Source: Solobacterium sp. (GTDB lineage: Bacteria > Bacillota_I > Bacilli_A > Erysipelotrichales > Erysipelotrichaceae). Taken from it: a stretch of DNA of 64,000 nucleotides. The notes under the pieces were generated by a model. That model ran no database searches. It worked only from the letters and a program-made list of their open reading frames with translations, and was not told where the DNA came from. The stretch is from NCBI GenBank assembly GCA_017432325.1, contig JAFRJJ010000069.1, positions 1 to 64,000 on the forward strand, in the 5' to 3' direction. Every line of letters starts with the position of its first letter. Position 1 is the stretch's first letter. Below are positions 186-61,233 of this stretch, in pieces. A program made the position numbers and the translations under genes.

Positions 186-206
186 CTCACAAGTGTGCTA
201 AAATTG
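186..206. repeat. Intergenic element shared with 17586-17606
   Basis: These 21 bases match 17586-17606 at 19 positions, and both differences are transitions. The core is CACAAGTGYGCTRAAATTG. Here it covers the extended -10 box of the lipoprotein gene; the second copy lies in the divergent ispG/rpmG region. A shared regulatory site is possible. Confidence 0.4.
196..204 (+). promoter_or_regulatory. Extended -10 promoter giving a near-leaderless transcript
   Basis: TGcTAAAAT (-10 at 199-204) ends seven bases before the ATG at 212, so the predicted start of transcription is 211. There is no Shine-Dalgarno sequence before this ATG. The -35 region (about 176-181, TTTAAA) is weak. Confidence 0.5.
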
Positions 207-211
207 CATCT

Positions 212-1015
212 ATGAAGCATTCATTGATCAAAAAAACAGCGGCAGCTTGTATATCGCTTCTGATGCTTGCAGGATGCAGCACAGACCGGATCGATGTAGC
301 TTCCGATGTCAACAGAAAACTTGCGGAAGCGGTCGAGATACCGGCGCATCAGCCGATCTACAACAGTACCTGTTATATGTATTACAAACAGCCGTATGTC
401 GGCAGGATCACATCAGACCTGACAAGCAACGTTTTTGCGCTGAACGGTACACAGTTTGTCATGAACCTGAATGTCCCCGGGATCATCAACATGGCTTATT
501 ATCCCGGCCAGACAGTAGGGGGCATGAATGTAAAGGGTGCTTCCATCATACTGGAAACAGCGGGAACGTATGAGAACTACGACGGAGACCAGCAGACATA
601 TGTCTGCAGGATCTACAGATCATCTTCTTCATATGTTACGATCATGACGACCGATTACGCAGAGTTCTTCGCCGTCAGCAGGTACTATGAGGTAGCTCCG
701 CTCGCGTATGAAATGCTGGTGATCGCAAAATCACTTGATGTGGATAAAGATGAAGTTTTGGACCGCTATTCAAGCCATAGTGTGATATCCTATCAGAAGA
801 AGAAACTTGAACTCTTCCAGAATATAACGCCGGTGAACGGTGTTATCGATGAGCTGTTTGTCGACAGCAGTCCCGGCGGGATGAAGCTTGGTGATAACGA
901 AGATTATATGGAAGCTTCGCCGTCAGCGACACCCGATGAACCGCTGTGGCCGGTCTACAGTGAAACGGAAAATCCCGAAACTGCGGAGCCTGAGGAAACA
1001 GGCAATCCCGGTTAG
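212..1015 (+). CDS. Putative lipoprotein of unknown function
   Basis: A 267-residue protein with a typical lipoprotein signal: Lys-rich start, hydrophobic stretch, then the lipobox LAGC, so Cys22 would be lipidated and the protein anchored outside the membrane. The body has no motif I recognise. The C-terminal ~40 residues are rich in Pro, Glu and Ser. Upstream in-frame starts exist, but the ATG at 212 is chosen because it gives the intact signal peptide and sits exactly behind an extended -10 box. Translation would then be leaderless, as no ribosome binding site is present. It is 63 bases from the next gene. Function unknown. Confidence 0.8.
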   Translation: MKHSLIKKTAAACISLLMLAGCSTDRIDVASDVNRKLAEAVEIPAHQPIYNSTCYMYYKQPYVGRITSDLTSNVFALNGTQFVMNLNVPGIINMAYYPGQTVGGMNVKGASIILETAGTYENYDGDQQTYVCRIYRSSSSYVTIMTTDYAEFFAVSRYYEVAPLAYEMLVIAKSLDVDKDEVLDRYSSHSVISYQKKKLELFQNITPVNGVIDELFVDSSPGGMKLGDNEDYMEASPSATPDEPLWPVYSETENPETAEPEETGNPG

Positions 1016-6553: not shown

Positions 6554-6559
6554 CGTTAT

Positions 6560-6783
6560 GGCTGTGAAAGGAATAAGTACTTTATGCGAAGCCGTACAAG
6601 AGACGTCCCGGGCGGTGAAAGGGACCGGCAGACCATGTAAGGAATACATCCCGGAGCTTCCTGTCTCAAAAGGCAGGGCGTGCGCGCCTGCGTTAAAGGC
6701 ATAGATGAGTGCATGATCCGGAGATCATGAACTAAGGTGGTACCGCGCTTTAGGCGTCCTTAGAATTTAAGGGCGCCTTTATG
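6560..6783 (+). promoter_or_regulatory. T-box leader (tyrosine) of tyrS
   Basis: A classic T-box riboswitch that senses uncharged tRNA-Tyr. Visible parts: the AGAGA motif and GGTGAAAG apical loop of stem I, the specifier UAC at 6645-6647 in the context GAA-UAC-A, the T-box sequence AAGGTGGTACCGCG (6734-6747), and a terminator (GGCGTCCTT/AAGGGCGCC with T-run, 6752-6783). The specifier position lines up with the GUC of the valS leader at 58 kb, which supports both assignments. Uncharged tRNA would favour the antiterminator and tyrS expression. Confidence 0.93.
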
Positions 6784-26364: not shown

Positions 26365-26376
26365 ACAAACGATAAA

Positions 26377-26483
26377 ACTCAGGGCTGGGTGAAATTCCCG
26401 ACCGGCGGTAAACCCCGCGAACTGTTTCGGCAGAACGAACCGGTGAGATTCCGGTGGCGACAGTAAAGTCTGGATGGAAGAGT
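26377..26483 (+). promoter_or_regulatory. FMN riboswitch (RFN element)
   Basis: The hallmark GGGTGAAATTCCCGACCGGCGGT region is present, with GGTGAGATTCCGGTGGCGACAG and AGTCTGGATG further on. The closing stem P1 pairs ACTC (26377) with GAGT (26480). With FMN bound it should favour the downstream terminator and switch off ribU. Confidence 0.95.
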
Positions 26484-26513
26484 ATTTTATTCTTTACATG
26501 TATCTTTTTCCCC

Positions 26514-31418: not shown

Positions 31419-31424
31419 TATGAT
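31419..31424 (+). promoter_or_regulatory. -10 box for a leaderless transcript
   Basis: TATGAT (31419-31424) puts the predicted transcription start at 31431, the A of the ATG. The -35 is weak. There is no Shine-Dalgarno sequence. Confidence 0.45.
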
Positions 31425-31430
31425 GAAGAT

Positions 31431-32450
31431 ATGAAACGCATACGCAGACTGATCAGACAGGCAGTCATGATGGTGATCATTTGTACGGCAGCACTGTTTG
31501 CTGTATTTGCCATGAGTCCCCAGACCGGGAAAGTGATCATTGAACTGGCCGGTCTTCTGACAAAGAAAACAGAAAACACAGCTGTATCGGAAACTGCTGA
31601 GGCAGCTGGGCAGGAAGAAAAGCCATCGGAGCCTGTACAGGTCGATGAATTCGATGAACTGTATTATCCGTATTACGGTCTGCTGAGCGATGAGCAGAAA
31701 CTGGTCTATCAGCAGGCATACAGGGAACTTCTATTGATGGATGCTGAGATCGAACCGGAAGTCACCGTCTCCGAGGAAGAGGTATCGGAAGCCGCCATGG
31801 CACTGCTGTATGACCATCCGGAACTTTTCTGGCTGGATACAGCATTCAGTTATCAGTACACGGAAGATCATGTATGCACAAAGCTCATCATGGAGTTCAA
31901 CAATACCGCAGAGCATATTGAAGAAGCGAAGAAACTGTTTGATCAGAGCGCGGATGCCATTATCAAAGAAGCCCTGAGCTGTTCAGGGGACTATGAAAAA
32001 GAGAAATATGTGCATGACGCGCTGCTGGACCTGGCAGGCTATGATACGGAAGCTTCCCTGAACCAGAGCGCATTCAGCGCGCTGGTATCACGTACAACAG
32101 TCTGCGCAGGCTATGCAAGGGCATTCCAGTACCTCATGACACGGCTGGGAATTCCCTGTTACTATGTCACCGGATACGCGGAAGGTGAGCATGCATGGAA
32201 TACCGTCATGCTGGACGGGGAGTTCTATAATGTCGATCTGACATGGGATGAGGGTTCCCTGACCGGATACGATTATTTCAATGTGCCGGACTCCCGTTTC
32301 CTTGAAACGCATCAAAGGACCGGCAGATCGCTGAAACTGCCCGCGTGCAACGGAACCGCGTATGCGTCTTTGCAGGACAGCATCAGGATCCCGGATATCT
32401 TCAGAAACCATGATATCCCCGAAGACGGGTTCAAACCGGGCGGGCACTGA
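31431..32450 (+). CDS. Membrane-anchored transglutaminase-like protein
   Basis: A 339-residue protein with an N-terminal membrane anchor (residues ~11-30) and a Glu/Ala-rich linker. Residues ~200-275 form a transglutaminase/protease-like core. The catalytic triad is visible: C225 in VCAGYA, H254 in EHAWN and D269 in VDLTWD. In bacteria such domains act as extracellular peptidases or crosslinking enzymes at the cell wall; which applies here is not known. The ATG at 31431 lies exactly seven bases behind a -10 box and has no ribosome binding site, so it may be leaderless. Confidence 0.8.
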   Translation: MKRIRRLIRQAVMMVIICTAALFAVFAMSPQTGKVIIELAGLLTKKTENTAVSETAEAAGQEEKPSEPVQVDEFDELYYPYYGLLSDEQKLVYQQAYRELLLMDAEIEPEVTVSEEEVSEAAMALLYDHPELFWLDTAFSYQYTEDHVCTKLIMEFNNTAEHIEEAKKLFDQSADAIIKEALSCSGDYEKEKYVHDALLDLAGYDTEASLNQSAFSALVSRTTVCAGYARAFQYLMTRLGIPCYYVTGYAEGEHAWNTVMLDGEFYNVDLTWDEGSLTGYDYFNVPDSRFLETHQRTGRSLKLPACNGTAYASLQDSIRIPDIFRNHDIPEDGFKPGGH

Positions 32451-45003: not shown

Positions 45004-45012
45004 TGGTAAAAT
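45004..45012 (+). promoter_or_regulatory. Extended -10 promoter giving a leaderless dnaE transcript
   Basis: TGgTAAAAT with the -10 at 45007-45012 puts the predicted start at 45019, the A of the dnaE ATG. No Shine-Dalgarno sequence is present. I see no other feature between the PBP start (44773) and here beyond the two divergent promoters. Confidence 0.5.
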
Positions 45013-45018
45013 AAGAAT

Positions 45019-48000
45019 ATGTCTGTTCATCTTTATGTAAGAAGCAGCTTTTCACTGCTTGATTCAACGATCCGTATCAATGACCTGGTGCGCAGGGCAA
45101 AACAGTACGGGTATCGGTCACTGGCGCTCACCGACCACAATGTAATGCACGGGGCACCGGTTTTTCTGCGTGCCTGCGCAAGGGAAGGCATCCGCCCGGT
45201 ATTCGGACTGGAAGCGGACTGCATGTATCATGATGAGATCGTACCGTTCCTGCTGCTGGCAAAGGACAATATCGGTTTTTCCGCTCTGATGAAGCTCAGC
45301 TCGGCCATTGCCTCGGGAACCGGATACTGCACGACGGAACAGCTGACTGAAAGCTGCCGGCATTGTTTCCTGATCGTCTTTACCGAAGGCGGGTGGTTTG
45401 AGTCAGCGATCATTTCCGAAGACAGGGATGAGGTCACAAGACGTCTGTCTGTCATGAAGGAGGAACTGCCGCCGTTTGATGTCGCTCTGTCCTATATGGA
45501 CGCCGCGCTCTGGAAAGCAAGGAGCGGCATGATCAAGCGGATCTGTTCCGCGCTGTCGCTTAGGACATGCGCGTTGAACCGGATCTACTACCTGGATGAA
45601 GAAGACAGCGAAAGCTACCGGATCCTGCGGGGGATCGGGCAGGGCAGGACGATCAAAGACCAGTCACTGCCACTGATCACGGGCAGGAGCTTTCTGGACA
45701 AACAGGCCATGGAACAGCTGTATGACAGTGATGACCTTGCCAGGACAGACGAGATCGCCGAACAGTGCAGGGCAGACATGGAACTGGAAAAAACAGGCCT
45801 TCCTGTTTTTGAGACCCCGGAAGGCGTCAGCAGCGCGCAGTATCTGACACAGCTGTGCATTGCCGGACTGAAAAAACGAATGAACGGGAATGTACCGGAC
45901 CAGTACATCAAACGTCTGAAATACGAACTGGATGTGATCATGGAAATGCATTTTGAAGACTATTTCCTGATCGTCTATGACTTTATCCGCTATGCCAGAA
46001 AGCATTCCGTCTATGTGGGACCGGGAAGAGGTTCCGCTGCCGGAAGTCTTGTATCATATACCCTTGGCATTACCCAGATCGATCCGCTGAAATACGGTCT
46101 GCTGTTTGAACGATTCCTGAATCCGGAACGTATTTCCATGCCTGATATCGATACGGATTTTCCTGACAATCACCGCCAGGAAGTGATCGATTATGTCTAC
46201 AGGAAATACGGCAGCGAGCATATCGCGAATATCGTGACGTTCGGCACACTCGGGGCAAAACAGGTGATCCGTGATGTCGGCAGGGTGCTGGACATCGATA
46301 AGCGTGACGTGGATATGCTGGCCAGGATGATCCCGAATACACAGAAGATCACGCTGAGCGACGCGCTCAGGCAGAATGCGCGGCTTTCCCAGGTCGTCAA
46401 TGCCGAGAAGCGTTACCAGAGGCTTTTCCGCATAGCGCTGAAACTCGAAGGTCTGCCCAGACACACGAGCCTTCACGCGGCGGGCATCGTCATGAGCCGT
46501 CTGCCACTGCAGCAGGTCGTGCCGGTGATGCAGGTGGAAGAGGGCATGTCGACCGTGCAGTATACGATGGAGCACCTGGAGAGCAGGGGGCTGATCAAGA
46601 TGGACTTCCTGGGACTGCGCAACCTGACGATCATCGATGATATCGTCAAACGCATCCAGAAAGAAGATCCCGGCTTCCGGATCATGGATATCCCGATGGA
46701 TGACCCTGCAGCATATGAAGTGATCCGTACATGTGATACGACAGGCATCTTCCAGTTCGAATCCTCAGGTATGAAGAACCTGCTGAGAAAGATGAAGCCG
46801 GACTGCTTTGAAGACATCGTCGCCGCGCTTGCCCTGTACAGGCCGGGACCGATGGACAACATCCCGGTCTATCTGAACAACCGCATGAATCCTGATCAGA
46901 TCACATATCCCGACAAAAAACTTGAACCCGTTCTGAAGAGCACATACGGGGTCATGATCTATCAGGAACAGGTCATGCAGACAGCGAGGATCGCTGCCGG
47001 TTTCACGCTGGGCAAAGCGGATGTGCTGAGAAAAGCCGTTTCGAAGAAGAATCTCTCCGAGATGGAAAACCTGAAGCAGGACTTCCTGAGGGGCTGCCGG
47101 CAGAACGGATATCCGGACAACGTCAGTGAATCGCTGTTTGCCTGGATCGAAAAGTTTGCCGGATACGGTTTCAACCGTTCCCATGCGGTCGCCTATGGTG
47201 TTGTCGCATATCAGCTTGCGTACCTGAAGGCACAGTACCCGCTCTATTTCTACTGCGCCCTGATCGATTCCGTCATCGGGGACGATACGAAGTGCGCCCA
47301 GTATATCGATGAGTGCAGAAGACGCAGGATCAGTGTATCCGGTCCGGATGTCAGCCTGAGTGAAGCGGGCTGCGCGGAGGTGAAGGGGAAGCTCGTGCTT
47401 CCGCTGACCGTCGTCAAGTCGATCGGCGAGCACGTGACGGACGAGATCCTGAAAGAACGCGCGCAGAAACCGTTTGATGATTATTTTGACTGCGTTGTCA
47501 GACTGAGCTGTCTGAAGATCAGCCGGAAGATGTTTGAGATGCTGATAGACGCAGGCGCGTTTGACTGCTTCGGGGAGAACCGCAGCACGATGAAAGGCTC
47601 ACTGGATGAAGCGCTAAGCTACGCGGACCTGGTCAGGATCGAAAAGGGCGGTATGAGCCTGATCGATATGTCGCTTGTTTCCAAGCCTGTGATGATCCGC
47701 ATGGCGGATGATGAGGCGGTCAGGAGCGAATGTGAAAAACAGGCGCTCGGTTTCTATATCGGTACCCATCCGATCGCCCTGATGCGCCGGAAATATGACC
47801 TGAATACGGAATCGATCGCTGCCCTGAAGGAGGCTTCGGGTGAAGTGACGGGTTTCGCGATGATCCAGAAGGTACATCAGCACAGGACGAGAAAAGGTGA
47901 TATGATGGCATTCCTGAATGTCATGGATGAAACGGGAAACATTGACCTGACGGTGATGCCCAATCTTTACAGGCAGTACGGGCAGGACCTGGTGAAAGGG

Positions 48001-48090
48001 AATTACATCCTGTTTCATGGTAAAATAGAAAAAGAAGATTCCTGCCTGTGCGGGAAACTGAAGGTATTAAAAGCGGAAAGGAGCAGATGA
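45019..48090 (+). CDS. dnaE: DNA polymerase III alpha subunit (DnaE)
   Basis: A 1023-residue C-family DNA polymerase. Firmicutes use PolC for most synthesis and DnaE for starting strands. The N-terminal PHP domain is degenerate: YVRSSFSLL replaces the metal-binding HxH. Palm residues are visible in PDIDTDF (D376, D378) and KMDFLGLRN (D529), with GPGRGSAAGS and YQEQVM. A C-terminal OB fold is present. It is shorter than E. coli DnaE, as is usual for this group. The ATG has no ribosome binding site and sits at the predicted transcription start. It heads an operon with a two-component pair. Confidence 0.94.
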   Translation: MSVHLYVRSSFSLLDSTIRINDLVRRAKQYGYRSLALTDHNVMHGAPVFLRACAREGIRPVFGLEADCMYHDEIVPFLLLAKDNIGFSALMKLSSAIASGTGYCTTEQLTESCRHCFLIVFTEGGWFESAIISEDRDEVTRRLSVMKEELPPFDVALSYMDAALWKARSGMIKRICSALSLRTCALNRIYYLDEEDSESYRILRGIGQGRTIKDQSLPLITGRSFLDKQAMEQLYDSDDLARTDEIAEQCRADMELEKTGLPVFETPEGVSSAQYLTQLCIAGLKKRMNGNVPDQYIKRLKYELDVIMEMHFEDYFLIVYDFIRYARKHSVYVGPGRGSAAGSLVSYTLGITQIDPLKYGLLFERFLNPERISMPDIDTDFPDNHRQEVIDYVYRKYGSEHIANIVTFGTLGAKQVIRDVGRVLDIDKRDVDMLARMIPNTQKITLSDALRQNARLSQVVNAEKRYQRLFRIALKLEGLPRHTSLHAAGIVMSRLPLQQVVPVMQVEEGMSTVQYTMEHLESRGLIKMDFLGLRNLTIIDDIVKRIQKEDPGFRIMDIPMDDPAAYEVIRTCDTTGIFQFESSGMKNLLRKMKPDCFEDIVAALALYRPGPMDNIPVYLNNRMNPDQITYPDKKLEPVLKSTYGVMIYQEQVMQTARIAAGFTLGKADVLRKAVSKKNLSEMENLKQDFLRGCRQNGYPDNVSESLFAWIEKFAGYGFNRSHAVAYGVVAYQLAYLKAQYPLYFYCALIDSVIGDDTKCAQYIDECRRRRISVSGPDVSLSEAGCAEVKGKLVLPLTVVKSIGEHVTDEILKERAQKPFDDYFDCVVRLSCLKISRKMFEMLIDAGAFDCFGENRSTMKGSLDEALSYADLVRIEKGGMSLIDMSLVSKPVMIRMADDEAVRSECEKQALGFYIGTHPIALMRRKYDLNTESIAALKEASGEVTGFAMIQKVHQHRTRKGDMMAFLNVMDETGNIDLTVMPNLYRQYGQDLVKGNYILFHGKIEKEDSCLCGKLKVLKAERSR

Positions 48091-48752
48091 TGGCCAGAAT
48101 ACTGATTGTGGATGATGAAAAGAATATCAGGGAGGTCGTCCGTGAATATGCCGTGCTGAACGGATACGAAACGGATGAAGCGGAAGACGGCATGCAGGCG
48201 ATGAACATGGTCGCCGAGACCGAATATGACTGTGTGATCCTGGATGTCATGATGCCCAGGCTTGACGGCTTTTCCGCATGCAAACAGATCAAGAAGATCC
48301 GCAGCGTGCCGGTGATCATGCTGTCGGCGCGTCAGGAAGAATATGACAAGCTGTTCGGTTTTGAGCTCGGTGTGGATGATTATGTCGTAAAGCCGTTCTC
48401 ACCGAAAGAACTGATGGCAAGGGTCAAAGTCGTGATCGACCGTTCGAGAAAGAACGATCATCAGGTCATGCGCTATGACGGACTGGTGATCGACGCTGAC
48501 GGAAGAAGCGTTACCGTCGACGGCGTACGTGCGGAAATGACGCCGAAGGAGATCGACCTGCTCATTTATCTCGCCAGACACGCAAATGTCGCGCTTTCCC
48601 GTGACAAGCTGCTGGAAGATGTATGGGGCTACGATTATTTCGGGGATGACCGCACTGTCGACACACATATCAAAATGCTCAGACATAATCTGGGCGACTA
48701 CCGAAATAAGATCGTTACTGTAAGAGGCATGGGGTACAAGTTTGAGGATTGA
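48090..48752 (+). CDS. OmpR-family response regulator
   Basis: A 220-residue DNA-binding regulator. The receiver has D8/D9, the phosphorylation site D52 (LDVMMP) and the VVKPF lysine near 102. A winged-helix output domain follows (TPKEIDLL, DDRTVDTHIKMLRH). GAAAGGAG lies upstream; of two adjacent ATG codons the second (48090) has the better spacing. It overlaps the dnaE stop and the kinase start, so the three are co-translated. The signal and targets are unknown. Confidence 0.92.
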   Translation: MARILIVDDEKNIREVVREYAVLNGYETDEAEDGMQAMNMVAETEYDCVILDVMMPRLDGFSACKQIKKIRSVPVIMLSARQEEYDKLFGFELGVDDYVVKPFSPKELMARVKVVIDRSRKNDHQVMRYDGLVIDADGRSVTVDGVRAEMTPKEIDLLIYLARHANVALSRDKLLEDVWGYDYFGDDRTVDTHIKMLRHNLGDYRNKIVTVRGMGYKFED

Positions 48753-50217
48753 CCGGCACGGAATCGTTTATACGATCTGGAAATACTTTGTTGCGTTCGC
48801 TGTGGGCATTCTGCTGATGCTCGGTTTCATGCAGATCCTGCTGATCAAACCGTATTACCGGAACAACAAGATCGTTACGGTATCACGCGTTACGGATCTG
48901 ATCAAGGAATATATCCTGGAAAACAGCAGTTCGGCGGATGACCTGACGAGAGCCTTCCAGCTGACAGTCGACAACAATGTATGCGTCTGCATCTACAATG
49001 ATGCGGGCAGACGGATCTATGACGCGGACTCGCTCGGGTCCGGATGTGTTTTTCATGTGGCCAATAAGGTGGAAGGAGCCGGCGGTATCAACCTGACGGA
49101 CGGCAAGGTCCTGAAACAGGCTGTCCAGGACAACAACGGTGAATGGAGCCTGAATGTCGTCAATGCGAGAACACAGCAGGAAATGATCGTTTATGGAAGA
49201 CAGTACCGGTTCAATCTGGGAAGCTATTATGTATTCGTCAATTCTCCGCTGGAACCGGTCGATTCGATCATTTCGTTTTTCTCCAGGCAGTATCTGCTTT
49301 ACGGACTGATCGTAGTCCTGGCCGCTTCGCTGATCTCGCTTTATTTTTCCAGAAGGGTGACCATGCCGATCGTCAGGATGAATTCCGAAGCGCTCAAGCT
49401 CGCGCACGCGGACTATTCCGCAAGTTTTGAGGGCGGCGGGTTCACCGAGACGAAGGAGCTTGCCGATACGCTGAACAACGCGAACACGAAACTTTCCAGG
49501 ATCGATGAACTGCGGAAAGACCTGATCGCGAATGTATCGCACGATATCAAGACACCGCTGACCTCGATCAAGGCATATGCGGAGATGATCAAGGATATTT
49601 CCGGCAACAACCCGGAAAAACGTGAACAGCATCTCAATGTCATCATTGATGAAGCTGATTATCTCGACCATCTTGTTTCGGATATGAATGAACTCTCCAA
49701 GATGCAGTCCGGCAACTACGTGCTGAAGCGCAGGAACTTTGACCTGGCGGACAAGATCCGCGAGATCATTTACCTGCACGACGTCATGATCCAGGAAGGG
49801 GATCTCACGGTAACGGCGGATCTGCCGGAAACACTGACGGTCTATGCAGACGAGGTCAAGATCGGACAGGTGATCTCCAATTTCCTTTCAAACGCGATCA
49901 AACATACCCCGGCAGGCAGAAGCATCCATATCAGGGCATACCTGAAGGGGGATGAGGAAACGGTCCGCATGGAGATCAAGGATGAAGGAGAGGGGATCAA
50001 AAAGGAAGACCTTCCGAATATCTGGGACAGATATCAGAAGTCCAGCCGTTCCTTCTCCCGCAGCATGACCAATACGGGTCTCGGCCTGTCGATCGTCAAG
50101 GCGATCCTGGATACGCACGGGGCAGCGTACGGCGTTGAAAGTGAAGAAGGCTGCGGTTCGATGTTCTGGTTTGAACTGAGCAATCCGACGGTAGTGGAGG
50201 ACGCTGATGAAGACTGA
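48742..50217 (+). CDS. Sensor histidine kinase
   Basis: A 491-residue membrane kinase. Two membrane helices (about 12-34 and 188-207) flank an extracellular sensor domain of ~150 residues. Then come HAMP, the dimerisation domain with H267 (NVSHDIKTP), and the ATPase domain with N-box NFLSNAIKH, DEGEGI and TGLGLSIV. It is the partner of the upstream regulator. The start appears to be the TTG at 48742, inside the regulator gene; no ATG precedes the first helix. The signal is unknown. Confidence 0.92.
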   Translation: MRIDRHGIVYTIWKYFVAFAVGILLMLGFMQILLIKPYYRNNKIVTVSRVTDLIKEYILENSSSADDLTRAFQLTVDNNVCVCIYNDAGRRIYDADSLGSGCVFHVANKVEGAGGINLTDGKVLKQAVQDNNGEWSLNVVNARTQQEMIVYGRQYRFNLGSYYVFVNSPLEPVDSIISFFSRQYLLYGLIVVLAASLISLYFSRRVTMPIVRMNSEALKLAHADYSASFEGGGFTETKELADTLNNANTKLSRIDELRKDLIANVSHDIKTPLTSIKAYAEMIKDISGNNPEKREQHLNVIIDEADYLDHLVSDMNELSKMQSGNYVLKRRNFDLADKIREIIYLHDVMIQEGDLTVTADLPETLTVYADEVKIGQVISNFLSNAIKHTPAGRSIHIRAYLKGDEETVRMEIKDEGEGIKKEDLPNIWDRYQKSSRSFSRSMTNTGLGLSIVKAILDTHGAAYGVESEEGCGSMFWFELSNPTVVEDADED

Positions 50218-52568: not shown

Positions 52569-52660
52569 GTTATCAGCCCTCCGTGGAGGTCTGTAACCGC
52601 TCAGAATAGGATTTTAAGCACAGAAATGTCTCCTTAATGGCGCGTCTTATGATAAATGTG
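52569..52660 (+). promoter_or_regulatory. Probable L21 leader
   Basis: A ~110-base 5' leader before rplU contains a GC-rich hairpin (CAGCCCTCC with GGAGGTCTG, 52574-52593) and a second structured part. Its place before rplU-prp-rpmA is where the Firmicute L21 leader, thought to be autoregulatory, is found. Assignment rests mainly on position. Confidence 0.5.
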
Positions 52661-56652: not shown

Positions 56653-57216
56653 TTACACAGGTCTGATCAGACGTTCATGCAGGGAATATGTGAGAGCCGT
56701 CCGGTAGTCACCGTTCCTGCACCAGAATGCGCAGTGTTCCTTATCGAACATGACAGGCTGTCTGTCATGGATCTCTGCCTGTGCCAGTACGGCATCCTCT
56801 GTCAGGATCACCATGCGCAGACCGTCATCAAATTTCTTGTACAGCGCAGCCAGGTAGACGGGTGTTTCGGAAGCGGTAAAATAGAATTTCCTGCGCGGAT
56901 CTTTCGACCATTCATAATAGCCGGAGGCACCGATCAGGCAGCGGGAGGAACCGGCAAAGAAACGGCTGTGCTGGGCAGTCTCGCTTCTTGCGTTGATGAT
57001 GAGTTTCCCATCTGTTCCCGGGTAGCCCCAGATCATCGGCGTCAGTACGCCTTTGCCGGAAGGATCTGCTGTGATCGCCAGCAATGATTCCGACGGGTGC
57101 ACTTCAAACAGGGACAGCTTTGAAAATGCCGCTTCATCCATCTGTGACCTGGCTGAAGCGATCCAGCTTTCTACTGTCTGATTCTCACCGTCAAAGTAAA
57201 GATACCGTCCGCACAT
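56653..57216 (-). CDS. SRAP-domain (YedK/HMCES-like) DNA-protein crosslink protein
   Basis: A 187-residue protein that shields abasic sites in single-stranded DNA by a covalent link through Cys2, exposed after Met removal (MCGRY). Further active residues are seen in INARSET and the late HDRQPVM. The start at 57216 is chosen because Cys2 must follow Met1, and because a -10 box puts the start of transcription exactly there; the ATG at 57222 would lie upstream of the RNA. There is no ribosome binding site, so it is probably leaderless. Confidence 0.88.
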   Translation of the reverse strand: MCGRYLYFDGENQTVESWIASARSQMDEAAFSKLSLFEVHPSESLLAITADPSGKGVLTPMIWGYPGTDGKLIINARSETAQHSRFFAGSSRCLIGASGYYEWSKDPRRKFYFTASETPVYLAALYKKFDDGLRMVILTEDAVLAQAEIHDRQPVMFDKEHCAFWCRNGDYRTALTYSLHERLIRPV

Positions 57217-57222
57217 GACCAT

Positions 57223-57231
57223 ATTGTAGCA
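57223..57231 (-). promoter_or_regulatory. Extended -10 promoter giving a leaderless SRAP transcript
   Basis: On the minus strand TGcTACAAT (-10 at plus positions 57223-57228) predicts transcription from 57216, the A of the MCGRY start codon. Confidence 0.5.
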
Positions 57232-58088: not shown

Positions 58089-58118
58089 TTGAAGAAAGCG
58101 TGCATGTTGGTTTAAAAT
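58089..58118 (+). promoter_or_regulatory. Promoter giving a leaderless transcript
   Basis: TTGAAG (58089-58094) and TAAAAT (58113-58118) with an 18-base spacer predict transcription from 58125, the A of the next start codon. Confidence 0.55.
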
Positions 58119-58124
58119 ATCCGC

Positions 58125-58382
58125 ATGGATGACAACAAAGAGATCGAGATCACACGCGGTTCCAGACTGACGAAGATGAAGGTGACGTACTTCCTGTCTG
58201 TCATGGGCATCTATTTCCTGACTTTTATGGTGCTCTACGGCATATCGGCAGTACTCCTGACGATCTTTCCCGTTCATCCGTACATTACACTGGCTGTGAA
58301 CCTGCTTCTGATGGCAGCTTCCGTGTCGGTCACGAAATTCATTGTCGATATTGAGCTGAAAGATAATTGGCTTCGGCACTGA
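58125..58382 (+). CDS. Small two-helix membrane protein
   Basis: An 85-residue protein with two hydrophobic helices (about 22-46 and 50-70) and short polar ends. I do not recognise a family. The coding sequence lies between its own promoter and the valS promoter, whose -35 overlaps its end. With no ribosome binding site and a -10 placed seven bases before the ATG, it is probably leaderless. Confidence 0.65.
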   Translation: MDDNKEIEITRGSRLTKMKVTYFLSVMGIYFLTFMVLYGISAVLLTIFPVHPYITLAVNLLLMAASVSVTKFIVDIELKDNWLRH

Positions 58383-58395: not shown

Positions 58396-58401
58396 CTTTT
58401 C

Positions 58402-58609
58402 ATAAGCGCTGAACAGGAGCAGTAATTGCCGGAAACTGTCAGAGAGCTGCCGGGTGGTGCGAGGCAGTGAGCGGAAAGCAGTGAAGTCGTCTGGGAGCTG
58501 GGTCCCCAAACCTCAGTAAGGGATCACGTACATGCACGTTACGCATTTGAGAAGCAATTAAGGTGGTACCACGCAAGACCGGCGTCCTTTGTTAAGGACG
58601 CCTTTTTTA
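58402..58609 (+). promoter_or_regulatory. T-box leader (valine) of valS
   Basis: T-box riboswitch for uncharged tRNA-Val. It shows AGAGA and GGTGCGAG in stem I, the specifier GUC in GAA-GUC-GUCU just before GGGAGC (the same place as UAC in the tyrS leader), T-box AAGGTGGTACCACG (58560-58573) and a terminator GGCGTCCTT/AAGGACGCC with T-run (58582-58608). Confidence 0.93.
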
Positions 58610-58620
58610 CAGGAGGGATT

Positions 58621-61233
58621 ATGGAAAAGAATCTGGAAACAAAATACGACCATCTGAAGGTCGAATCCGGGAAGTATGACGAATGGGTGAAAAAGGGTTA
58701 TTTCACTGCCGGGGACAAATCAAAGGATCCGTTTACGATCGTCATTCCGCCGCCGAATGTCACGGGCATTCTGCATATCGGACACGCATGGGACAACACG
58801 CTGCAGGATATCATTACCCGCTATAAGAGAATGCAGGGATATGACATGCTGTATCTGCCGGGCATGGACCATGCAGGTATCGCGACACAGGCAAGAGTCG
58901 ACGCAAGACTGAAGTCCGAAGGTACGAACCGCTATGAGATCGGCCGTGAAAAGTTCCTGGAACGAGCATGGGAATGGAAAGAGGAATATGCCGCAACGAT
59001 CCGCAAACAGTGGGCGAAACTCGGCAATTCTCTGGACTATACAAGAGAACGCTTTACGATGGACGAGGGCTTCAACGCTGCTGTCAGACATGTATTTGTC
59101 ACGCTGTACAATGAGGGACTGATCTACCGCGGCTGGAGGATCATCAACTGGGATCCGGTTGCCCGTACTGCCCTCAGCAATATCGAGGTTTACCATCAGA
59201 ACGACCCCGGCAAGATGTACTACTTCAAATACCATGTAGTGGATTCCGAAGAGACATTTACAGTCGCTACAACAAGACCGGAAACGATGTTCGGTGACGT
59301 ATGCGTCGTTGTCAATCCGGAAGATCCCAGATTCAAGCACCTGATCGGAAAGAAGGCGGTCAACCCGGCAAACGGGGAAGTGCTTGAGATCATCGCGGAC
59401 GACTATGTCGATGTGGAATTCGGTACCGGTGCGATGAAGTGCACGCCGGCGCACGACCCCAACGACTTCCTGATCGCTGAAAGACACGGTCTGCCGAAAC
59501 CCATCTGCATGAACCCGGACGGAACGATGAACGCGCTGGCCGGGGAATTCGAGGGCATGGACCGTTACGAATGCAGAGACCGCCTGACTGAACGCATTGA
59601 GTCAGAAGGCAACCTGGTCAAGATCGAAGATATCCAGCATGATGTCGGACACTCCGAACGCACGCACTGCGTCGTTGAACCGTATCTTTCCCAGCAGTGG
59701 TTCGTCAAGATGAAGCCGCTGGCACAGGATGTCCTGGATCATCAGGATGATCCGGACCAGAAGATCACATTCTATCCCGAGCGTTTTGAGCGTACATTCT
59801 CACAGTGGCTGGAGAATATCGAAGACTGGTGCATCTCCAGACAGCTCTGGTGGGGACACAGGATCCCGGCATGGTACAACAATACGACAGGGGAGACCTA
59901 TGTCGGTGATACGGAACCGGAAGATATCGAAAACTGGACACAGGATGAAGACGTCCTGGATACATGGTTCTCCAGCGCTCTTTGGCCATTCGCAACACTG
60001 GGCTGGCCCGAGGAAACAGATGATTACCATCATTTCTATCCGACGACCACGATGGTCACCGGATATGACATCATCTTCTTCTGGGTCGCAAGAATGGCGT
60101 TCCAGGCAAGACACTTTACACATGACCGTCCGTTCAGGGATGTCCTGATCCACGGCCTGATCCGTGACGCGCAGGGCCGCAAGATGTCCAAATCACTGGG
60201 CAACGGCATCGACCCGATGCAGGTCATCGATGAGTACGGTGTCGACGCGCTGAGATTCTTCCTCACGACAAACTCCACGCCCGGCCAGGATATGCGTTAT
60301 ATCCCCGAAAAGGTCGAGGCGGCATGGAACTTCATCAACAAGATCTGGAATGCGAGCAGGTTCGTCCTCATGAATCTGCCGGAAGGCATGAGCGCGGATG
60401 ATATCGATCTGAGTCACCTGTCACTGGCCGATACATGGATCCTGAACAAACTGAATGAAACGATCGCGCATGTCAACGCGAACATGGATAAGTATGAGTT
60501 CGCGCTTGTCGGCAACGAACTGTACGCATTCGTCTGGGATGATTTCTGCAGCTGGTATGTGGAAATGAGCAAGGCAAGCCTGTCTTCCGATGATCCTGAA
60601 GTCGTCAAGGCGGCACAGTCCACGCTTTACATCATGCTGGACCATATCGTCAGACTGCTGCATCCGTTCATGCCGTTTGTAACGGAAGAGATCTTCGGCA
60701 TGCTGAATGAGAAAGAAGAAAGCATCTGCATCGCGAAATGGGCTGAAACGGTCGAAGGCCTGCCTGCATGCGATATGGAATCCATGGAGCGCCTGATCTC
60801 GATTATCAAGAAGACAAGAGAAGTCAAGATCGCAAACGATTTGAAGCCGGGTGCGCATCTGGATATCCTTGTCAAGGATATTGACAACCAGCTGATCGAA
60901 CCGGATGAACAGCTGAGCTCGATCCTGGAGCGTATGGCAAAAACAACATGGAAGTCTTCGCTGGACGGCGACCTGACTGTACATCCCGTCAAGTCCGGAT
61001 CCATCTATATTCCTTCCGAACAGCTGCTTGATAAAGCTGCTGAGATCGCAAAACTGACGAGTGAAAAAACACGTCTGGAAAGCGAGATCAAGCGTTCAAC
61101 GGGTATCCTTTCCAATCAGGGATTCCTGGCAAAAGCGCCTGCCGCAAAAGTCGAGACCGAAAAGAAAAAACTCGACGATTACAAAAAGCAATATGATGTC
61201 GTTATTGCGAGATTGCAGGCTTTAAACGTATAA
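58621..61233 (+). CDS. valS: Valyl-tRNA synthetase
   Basis: An 870-residue class I synthetase that charges tRNA-Val. HIGH motif HIGHAWDNTLQ (about 46), a large editing domain (~180-330, with TTRPETMFGD), KMSKS at RKMSKSLGNG (about 520), and a C-terminal coiled-coil arm (~805-870). AGGAGG precedes the ATG. It is controlled by the valine T-box. Confidence 0.97.
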   Translation: MEKNLETKYDHLKVESGKYDEWVKKGYFTAGDKSKDPFTIVIPPPNVTGILHIGHAWDNTLQDIITRYKRMQGYDMLYLPGMDHAGIATQARVDARLKSEGTNRYEIGREKFLERAWEWKEEYAATIRKQWAKLGNSLDYTRERFTMDEGFNAAVRHVFVTLYNEGLIYRGWRIINWDPVARTALSNIEVYHQNDPGKMYYFKYHVVDSEETFTVATTRPETMFGDVCVVVNPEDPRFKHLIGKKAVNPANGEVLEIIADDYVDVEFGTGAMKCTPAHDPNDFLIAERHGLPKPICMNPDGTMNALAGEFEGMDRYECRDRLTERIESEGNLVKIEDIQHDVGHSERTHCVVEPYLSQQWFVKMKPLAQDVLDHQDDPDQKITFYPERFERTFSQWLENIEDWCISRQLWWGHRIPAWYNNTTGETYVGDTEPEDIENWTQDEDVLDTWFSSALWPFATLGWPEETDDYHHFYPTTTMVTGYDIIFFWVARMAFQARHFTHDRPFRDVLIHGLIRDAQGRKMSKSLGNGIDPMQVIDEYGVDALRFFLTTNSTPGQDMRYIPEKVEAAWNFINKIWNASRFVLMNLPEGMSADDIDLSHLSLADTWILNKLNETIAHVNANMDKYEFALVGNELYAFVWDDFCSWYVEMSKASLSSDDPEVVKAAQSTLYIMLDHIVRLLHPFMPFVTEEIFGMLNEKEESICIAKWAETVEGLPACDMESMERLISIIKKTREVKIANDLKPGAHLDILVKDIDNQLIEPDEQLSSILERMAKTTWKSSLDGDLTVHPVKSGSIYIPSEQLLDKAAEIAKLTSEKTRLESEIKRSTGILSNQGFLAKAPAAKVETEKKKLDDYKKQYDVVIARLQALNV

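What the first reader, a model, noticed from the sequence alone, without database searches (positions are those of the whole stretch)
45004..45021. Several genes look leaderless, including dnaE
At dnaE the extended -10 TGgTAAAAT ends six bases before the ATG, so RNA would start on the A of the start codon. The same geometry occurs at 31431 (transglutaminase-like), 57216 (SRAP, minus strand), 58125 (small membrane protein) and, one base off, at 212 (lipoprotein). None of the five has a Shine-Dalgarno sequence, while most genes around them have strong ones. Repeated exact spacing is hard to explain by chance. It suggests regular leaderless translation, which is not usual for Firmicutes.
Basis: partly seen in the sequence, partly recalled or inferred. 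Interest (0 to 1): 0.72.

Follow-up and report, generated by a model that had tools for sequence, protein, structure and literature searches.

The report
Leaderless start signals at dnaE, SRAP
In this Erysipelotrichaceae bacterium about one gene in 25, including the gene for a replicative DNA polymerase, has its promoter so close to the start codon that the mRNA should begin at the A of ATG; relatives have kept this arrangement over great distances, but this way of starting translation is already known from other bacteria, including streptococci.

Summary
At dnaE, TGGTAAAAT (45004-45012) ends exactly six bases before ATG 45019; the other four sites have the stated spacing (6, 6, 6, 7), though 31431 and 58125 lack the TGn extension. 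In an 829-kb genome sample, SD-free ATG starts carry a -10-like hexamer 6 or 7 bases upstream 35 times, against 6.5 in shuffles (maximum 14). The excess is confined to ATG, has a pyrimidine at -1 in 32 of 35, and sits at first genes of transcription units. The exact spacing is kept at dnaE in 21 of 27 genus members and at SRAP, whose start is fixed by its catalytic Cys2, in 24 of 30 (shuffle maximum 3 each). The genome-wide excess occurs in 59 of 60 genus members, in only some genera of the family, and not on average in the rest of the phylum. Start type at dnaE switched at least 12 times on the DnaE tree. Leaderless mRNAs are the best explanation (0.9), inferred from DNA only. 'Not usual for Firmicutes' is overstated: streptococci have 8-9% mapped leaderless mRNAs. 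A new lineage and new genes for a known mechanism.

The parts
45004..45012 (+). extended -10 box TGGTAAAAT of dnaE; predicted transcription start is the A of the ATG at 45019
   Evidence: spacing conserved in the genus
45019..48090 (+). dnaE, DNA polymerase III alpha subunit (PHP, NTPase, finger, HHH, OB domains), predicted leaderless
   Evidence: Pfam; an in-frame TAA inside the -10 box excludes a start further upstream (sequence)
57223..57231 (-). extended -10 box TGCTACAAT of the SRAP gene, six bases before ATG 57216
   Evidence: conserved in 24 of 30 relatives
56653..57216 (-). SRAP (SOS response-associated peptidase) gene, predicted leaderless; start fixed by Met1-Cys2
58113..58118 (+). 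-10 box TAAAAT, six bases before ATG 58125 (no TGn)
   Evidence: conserved in a close relative
58125..58382 (+). 85-aa ORF (membrane-type), real gene, predicted leaderless
   Evidence: substitutions against a close relative by codon position 1, 0, 7
31419..31424 (+). -10 box TATGAT, six bases before ATG 31431 (no TGn)
31431..32450 (+). transglutaminase-like protein with N-terminal signal-type segment, predicted leaderless
196..204 (+). extended -10 box TGCTAAAAT, seven bases before ATG 212
212..1015 (+). lipoprotein-type ORF, predicted leaderless or with a leader of about one base
   Evidence: no Pfam match

Best explanation
These genes are transcribed from sigma-70-type promoters whose -10 box lies 6 (sometimes 7) bases before the ATG, so the primary mRNA begins at, or one base before, the A of the start codon. 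With no leader and no SD, translation must start by direct recognition of the 5'-terminal AUG, most likely by 70S ribosomes with initiator tRNA. About 4% of the sampled genes are of this type; most others use SD starts. Shown here: the sequence geometry, its excess over chance, its conservation and its ATG specificity. Inferred: the transcription start itself. Taken from other bacteria: 70S initiation on leaderless mRNA.
For: (1) 24 at d=6 and 11 at d=7 against shuffled means 3.25 and 3.26 in 707 genes; spacings have two peaks, 6-7 and about 20-27. (2) Only ATG shows the peak; GTG and TTG starts give 0/2 and 1/1 at d=6/7, as expected if a 5'-terminal AUG is needed. (3) Position -1 is a pyrimidine in 32 of 35 and in 30 of 32 whole-genome hits, versus 43 of 82 for control spacings: the usual -1Y/+1R start site. 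(4) Genus dnaE: 21 of 27 at d=6 and 2 at d=7; SRAP: 24 of 30 and 1; shuffles at most 3, while most surrounding columns are randomised. (5) SRAP starts at Met-Cys2, so its start is not a mis-annotation. (6) Candidates lie at transcription-unit starts: 55% have a divergent upstream neighbour versus 25% of other genes, and 10% lie within 20 bp of the upstream gene versus 36%. (7) Genome-wide d6 versus d9-12 counts per spacer: 2.13 in the genus, 59 of 60 genomes above 1; 0.90 in 113 other genomes of the phylum. (8) dnaE of other genera mostly has an SD plus a -10 some 20-30 bases upstream, and genera with leaderless dnaE have higher genome-wide ratios (p = 1.9e-5).
Against: No RNA or protein data. 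No conserved -35 hexamer, and the TGn extension is present in only 9 of 27 dnaE and 18 of 30 SRAP. An additional upstream promoter giving a leadered transcript cannot be excluded at any one gene. The gene caller and SD score are home-made; the cases at 31431 and 212 were not tested by conservation. The -1 tallies use listed subsets of matches copied by hand.
Confidence: 0.9

Rival explanations
1. Leaderless plus leadered: a second, leadered transcript from an upstream promoter exists, and the leaderless one is minor.
For: Intergenic regions are long (212 bp before dnaE, next to a divergent penicillin-binding protein gene).
Against: No SD in the region, so a leadered transcript would be poorly translated; no conserved upstream columns at dnaE.
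Confidence: 0.1
2. The -10-like hexamers near these ATGs are AT-rich chance matches; the real promoters lie further upstream and the genes are translated from leadered, SD-free mRNAs.
For: A -10 match is short, and some single cases (31431, 212) rest on one genome.
Against: The excess is at two adjacent spacings, exceeds all 300 shuffles, needs ATG, has the -1 pyrimidine and is conserved at orthologues.
Confidence: 0.05
3. The promoters are real, but the assumed ATG is not the start; translation starts at a downstream codon with an SD and an ordinary leader.
For: Possible for some of the weaker candidates in the list, whose starts were not checked against relatives.
Against: SRAP needs Cys2 right after Met1; DnaE's PHP domain begins at residue 4 and the next in-frame start is tens of codons downstream; SD-led orthologues start at the same residue.
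Confidence: 0.03

Closest known systems
Leaderless mRNAs of streptococci (S. agalactiae PMC4448216, S. pyogenes PMC6431027)
   Same: Bacilli with a working SD system; 8-9% of mRNAs leaderless; in S. agalactiae all have AUG and 90% begin at its A; the set is conserved between species; holA is leaderless there and predicted so here (L083:4097)
   Different: There mapped by RNA-seq; here inferred from DNA. The S. agalactiae main text does not mention dnaE.
TA-led genes of Zheng et al. 2011 (PMC3160421)
   Same: TANNNT about 12 bp before the start codon and no SD; TAtAAT with a TG peak in low-GC genomes
   Different: In Firmicutes they reported Lactobacillales clades and Mycoplasma; Erysipelotrichaceae are not named in the section read.
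Leaderless genes of Actinobacteria and Deinococcus-Thermus (PMC3160421)
   Same: -10 box directly before the start codon
   Different: There about 20-40% of genes; here about 4%, beside a dominant SD system.

Membership tests
Leaderless mRNA genes | -10 box placed so that the transcription start falls on or within a few bases of the start codon | tested here: met
Leaderless mRNA genes | no SD sequence before the start | tested here: met
Leaderless mRNA genes | AUG start codon | tested here: met
   excess only at ATG
Leaderless mRNA genes | conservation of the geometry at orthologues | tested here: met
   dnaE and SRAP; the Y-family polymerase is mixed
Leaderless mRNA genes | mapped RNA 5' end at the start codon | not testable with these tools
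   needs dRNA-seq or Cappable-seq
Leaderless mRNA genes | translation initiated at the 5'-terminal AUG (70S) | not testable with these tools
   needs toeprinting, ribosome profiling or reporters

The most novel reading that the evidence does not exclude
In part of the Erysipelotrichaceae, leaderless initiation is a maintained regulatory class enriched for DNA replication and repair (dnaE, holA, recG, SRAP, a Y-family polymerase, RNase HIII, an AddB-like nuclease, a GIY-YIG protein), so that the replicative polymerase is made through a translation route that responds to stress differently from the SD route.
Probability: 0.12. Interest if true: 0.7.

Novelty: new member of a known kind. Interest (0 to 1): 0.5.

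Why it matters
It adds a family of mostly gut bacteria to the short list of Firmicutes with regular leaderless genes. It also gives a natural comparative system: the same gene (dnaE) is leaderless in some genera and SD-led in others, with at least 12 switches on the DnaE tree, so what selects for or tolerates leaderless starts becomes testable. Gene finders that lean on an SD may misplace such starts.

Tried and rejected
A Y-family polymerase as a third conserved case: mixed, several orthologues lie close behind other genes or have an SD. A -35 box: none conserved. Mis-annotated starts: rejected for SRAP and dnaE. Unreal ORF at 58125: rejected, third-position substitutions dominate. One paper search failed on a term with a sign. 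The script stopped after its main counts; only those are used. L103 dnaE was scored 'neither' because its hexamer at six bases is TATAAA. Enrichment for repair genes was seen but not tested against a background set.

Full report
What was checked. The window lies in a 3.3-Mb draft genome of 90 contigs (94.69% complete). Its nearest named DnaE relatives are an uncultured Erysipelotrichaceae bacterium (52% identity, full length) and a Solobacterium MAG (60%, partial), so I take it as Erysipelotrichaceae; this is an inference. The dnaE signal is as described: TGGTAAAAT at 45004-45012, six bases, ATG at 45019. The other four sites have spacers of 6, 6, 6 and 7, but two of them (31431 and 58125) lack the TGn of an extended -10.

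Is it chance? Shuffled upstream sequences give 3.25 and 3.26 (maxima 8 and 10 in 300 shuffles), and spacings 8 to 17 average 3.1. The second, broad hump at about 20-27 is the ordinary promoter distance of leadered genes. The excess, about 28 genes, is roughly 4% of the genes sampled.

Three independent marks of a transcription start at the A. First, the base before the ATG is a pyrimidine in 32 of 35 of these genes and in 30 of 32 whole-genome hits, against 43 of 82 for control spacings and 91 of 150 for the same pattern outside the family (from listed matches). Second, GTG and TTG starts show no peak. Third, the candidates are first genes: 55% have a divergent upstream neighbour (others 25%) and 10% lie within 20 bp of the gene upstream (others 36%).

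Conservation. DnaE N-termini in the genus are mostly 38-58% identical to this one, yet 21 of 27 dnaE genes keep the hexamer at exactly six bases and two at seven (shuffle maximum 3). Little else upstream is conserved: a weak TG, an A at -6 and the -1 pyrimidine. SRAP keeps the hexamer at six in 24 of 30 and at seven in one, and its start is beyond doubt because the catalytic Cys must follow Met1 (the role of Cys2 is established knowledge of the SRAP/HMCES family). The 58125 ORF is real: against a close relative, changes by codon position are 1, 0, 7, and the -10 and spacing are kept while the sequence further upstream has diverged.

Spread. Whole-genome counts of TGNTANAAT-N6-ATG against N9-12 (per spacer) give 2.13 for the genus, with 59 of 60 genomes above 1. 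In the family the ratio runs from 0.5 to 8.7, with 23 of 58 scorable genera at 2 or more. In 113 genomes of the phylum outside the family it is 0.90 overall, with a few families near 2. In genera without leaderless dnaE the gene usually has an SD and a -10 some 20-30 bases upstream. Genera with leaderless dnaE have the higher genome-wide ratios (Mann-Whitney p = 1.9e-5, not corrected for relatedness). On a quick DnaE tree of 106 rows the start type changed at least 12 times; the root is not inferred, so gain and loss cannot be told apart.

Which genes. Candidates identified by Pfam include holA, recG, RNase HIII, a PD-(D/E)XK nuclease, Ham1, TilS, a GIY-YIG protein, MATE, FtsW/RodA and HAD hydrolases, and a Y-family-type polymerase (L086:4106; named from its N-terminal sequence, not scanned). 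A leaning to replication and repair is suggestive but untested. holA is leaderless by RNA-seq in S. agalactiae (PMC4448216), and a DNA polymerase III subunit gene is leaderless in two enterococci (PMC7724050).

How it works, and what is known. RNA polymerase starting at the A yields an mRNA with a 5'-terminal AUG; in other bacteria such mRNAs are bound mainly by 70S ribosomes (review PMC9031893). Leaderless genes in Firmicutes were predicted in Lactobacillales and Mycoplasma (PMC3160421), and mapped ones make up 8-9% of streptococcal mRNAs and are conserved between species (PMC6431027). A search of the paper library for 'leaderless' with 'Erysipelotrich' found no study of this family. The finding is therefore real and well supported, in a new lineage, but of a known kind.

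Limits. There are no RNA data; the gene calls are home-made; the sample is about a third of the genome; the 31431 and 212 cases rest on this genome alone.

Noticed in passing
L164:951-2501; TGGTATAATATAGATATG at ends of contigs C8, C20, C27, C34, C47, C55: Transposase genes of the IS1182 type (DUF772 and DDE_Tnp_1_6 domains in L164) have the same leaderless geometry; the repeated copies sit at contig ends. A similar repeat (TGGTATAATTTATGTATG) starts a 524-aa ORF in another genus (L315).
   Followed up: partly
window 6555-6764 and 58400-58592: Two T-box leaders (Rfam); the second precedes the valyl-tRNA synthetase-like gene at 58621 and directly follows the 58125 ORF.
   Followed up: no
window 26371-26489 and 52585-52657: FMN riboswitch and a ribosomal protein L21 leader (Rfam).
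   Followed up: no
window 48048-50217: dnaE is followed, with overlap, by a response regulator and a histidine kinase gene.
   Followed up: no
family f5 genus g66 and families f8, f13, f15: A few other groups of the phylum also show a raised d6 ratio (1.5-2.2) and may hold leaderless genes independently; f13 and f15 are single genomes.
   Followed up: no
L083:4097-5134: holA (DNA polymerase III delta) is predicted leaderless here and is leaderless by RNA-seq in S. agalactiae, which suggests a gene that is leaderless across orders.
   Followed up: partly
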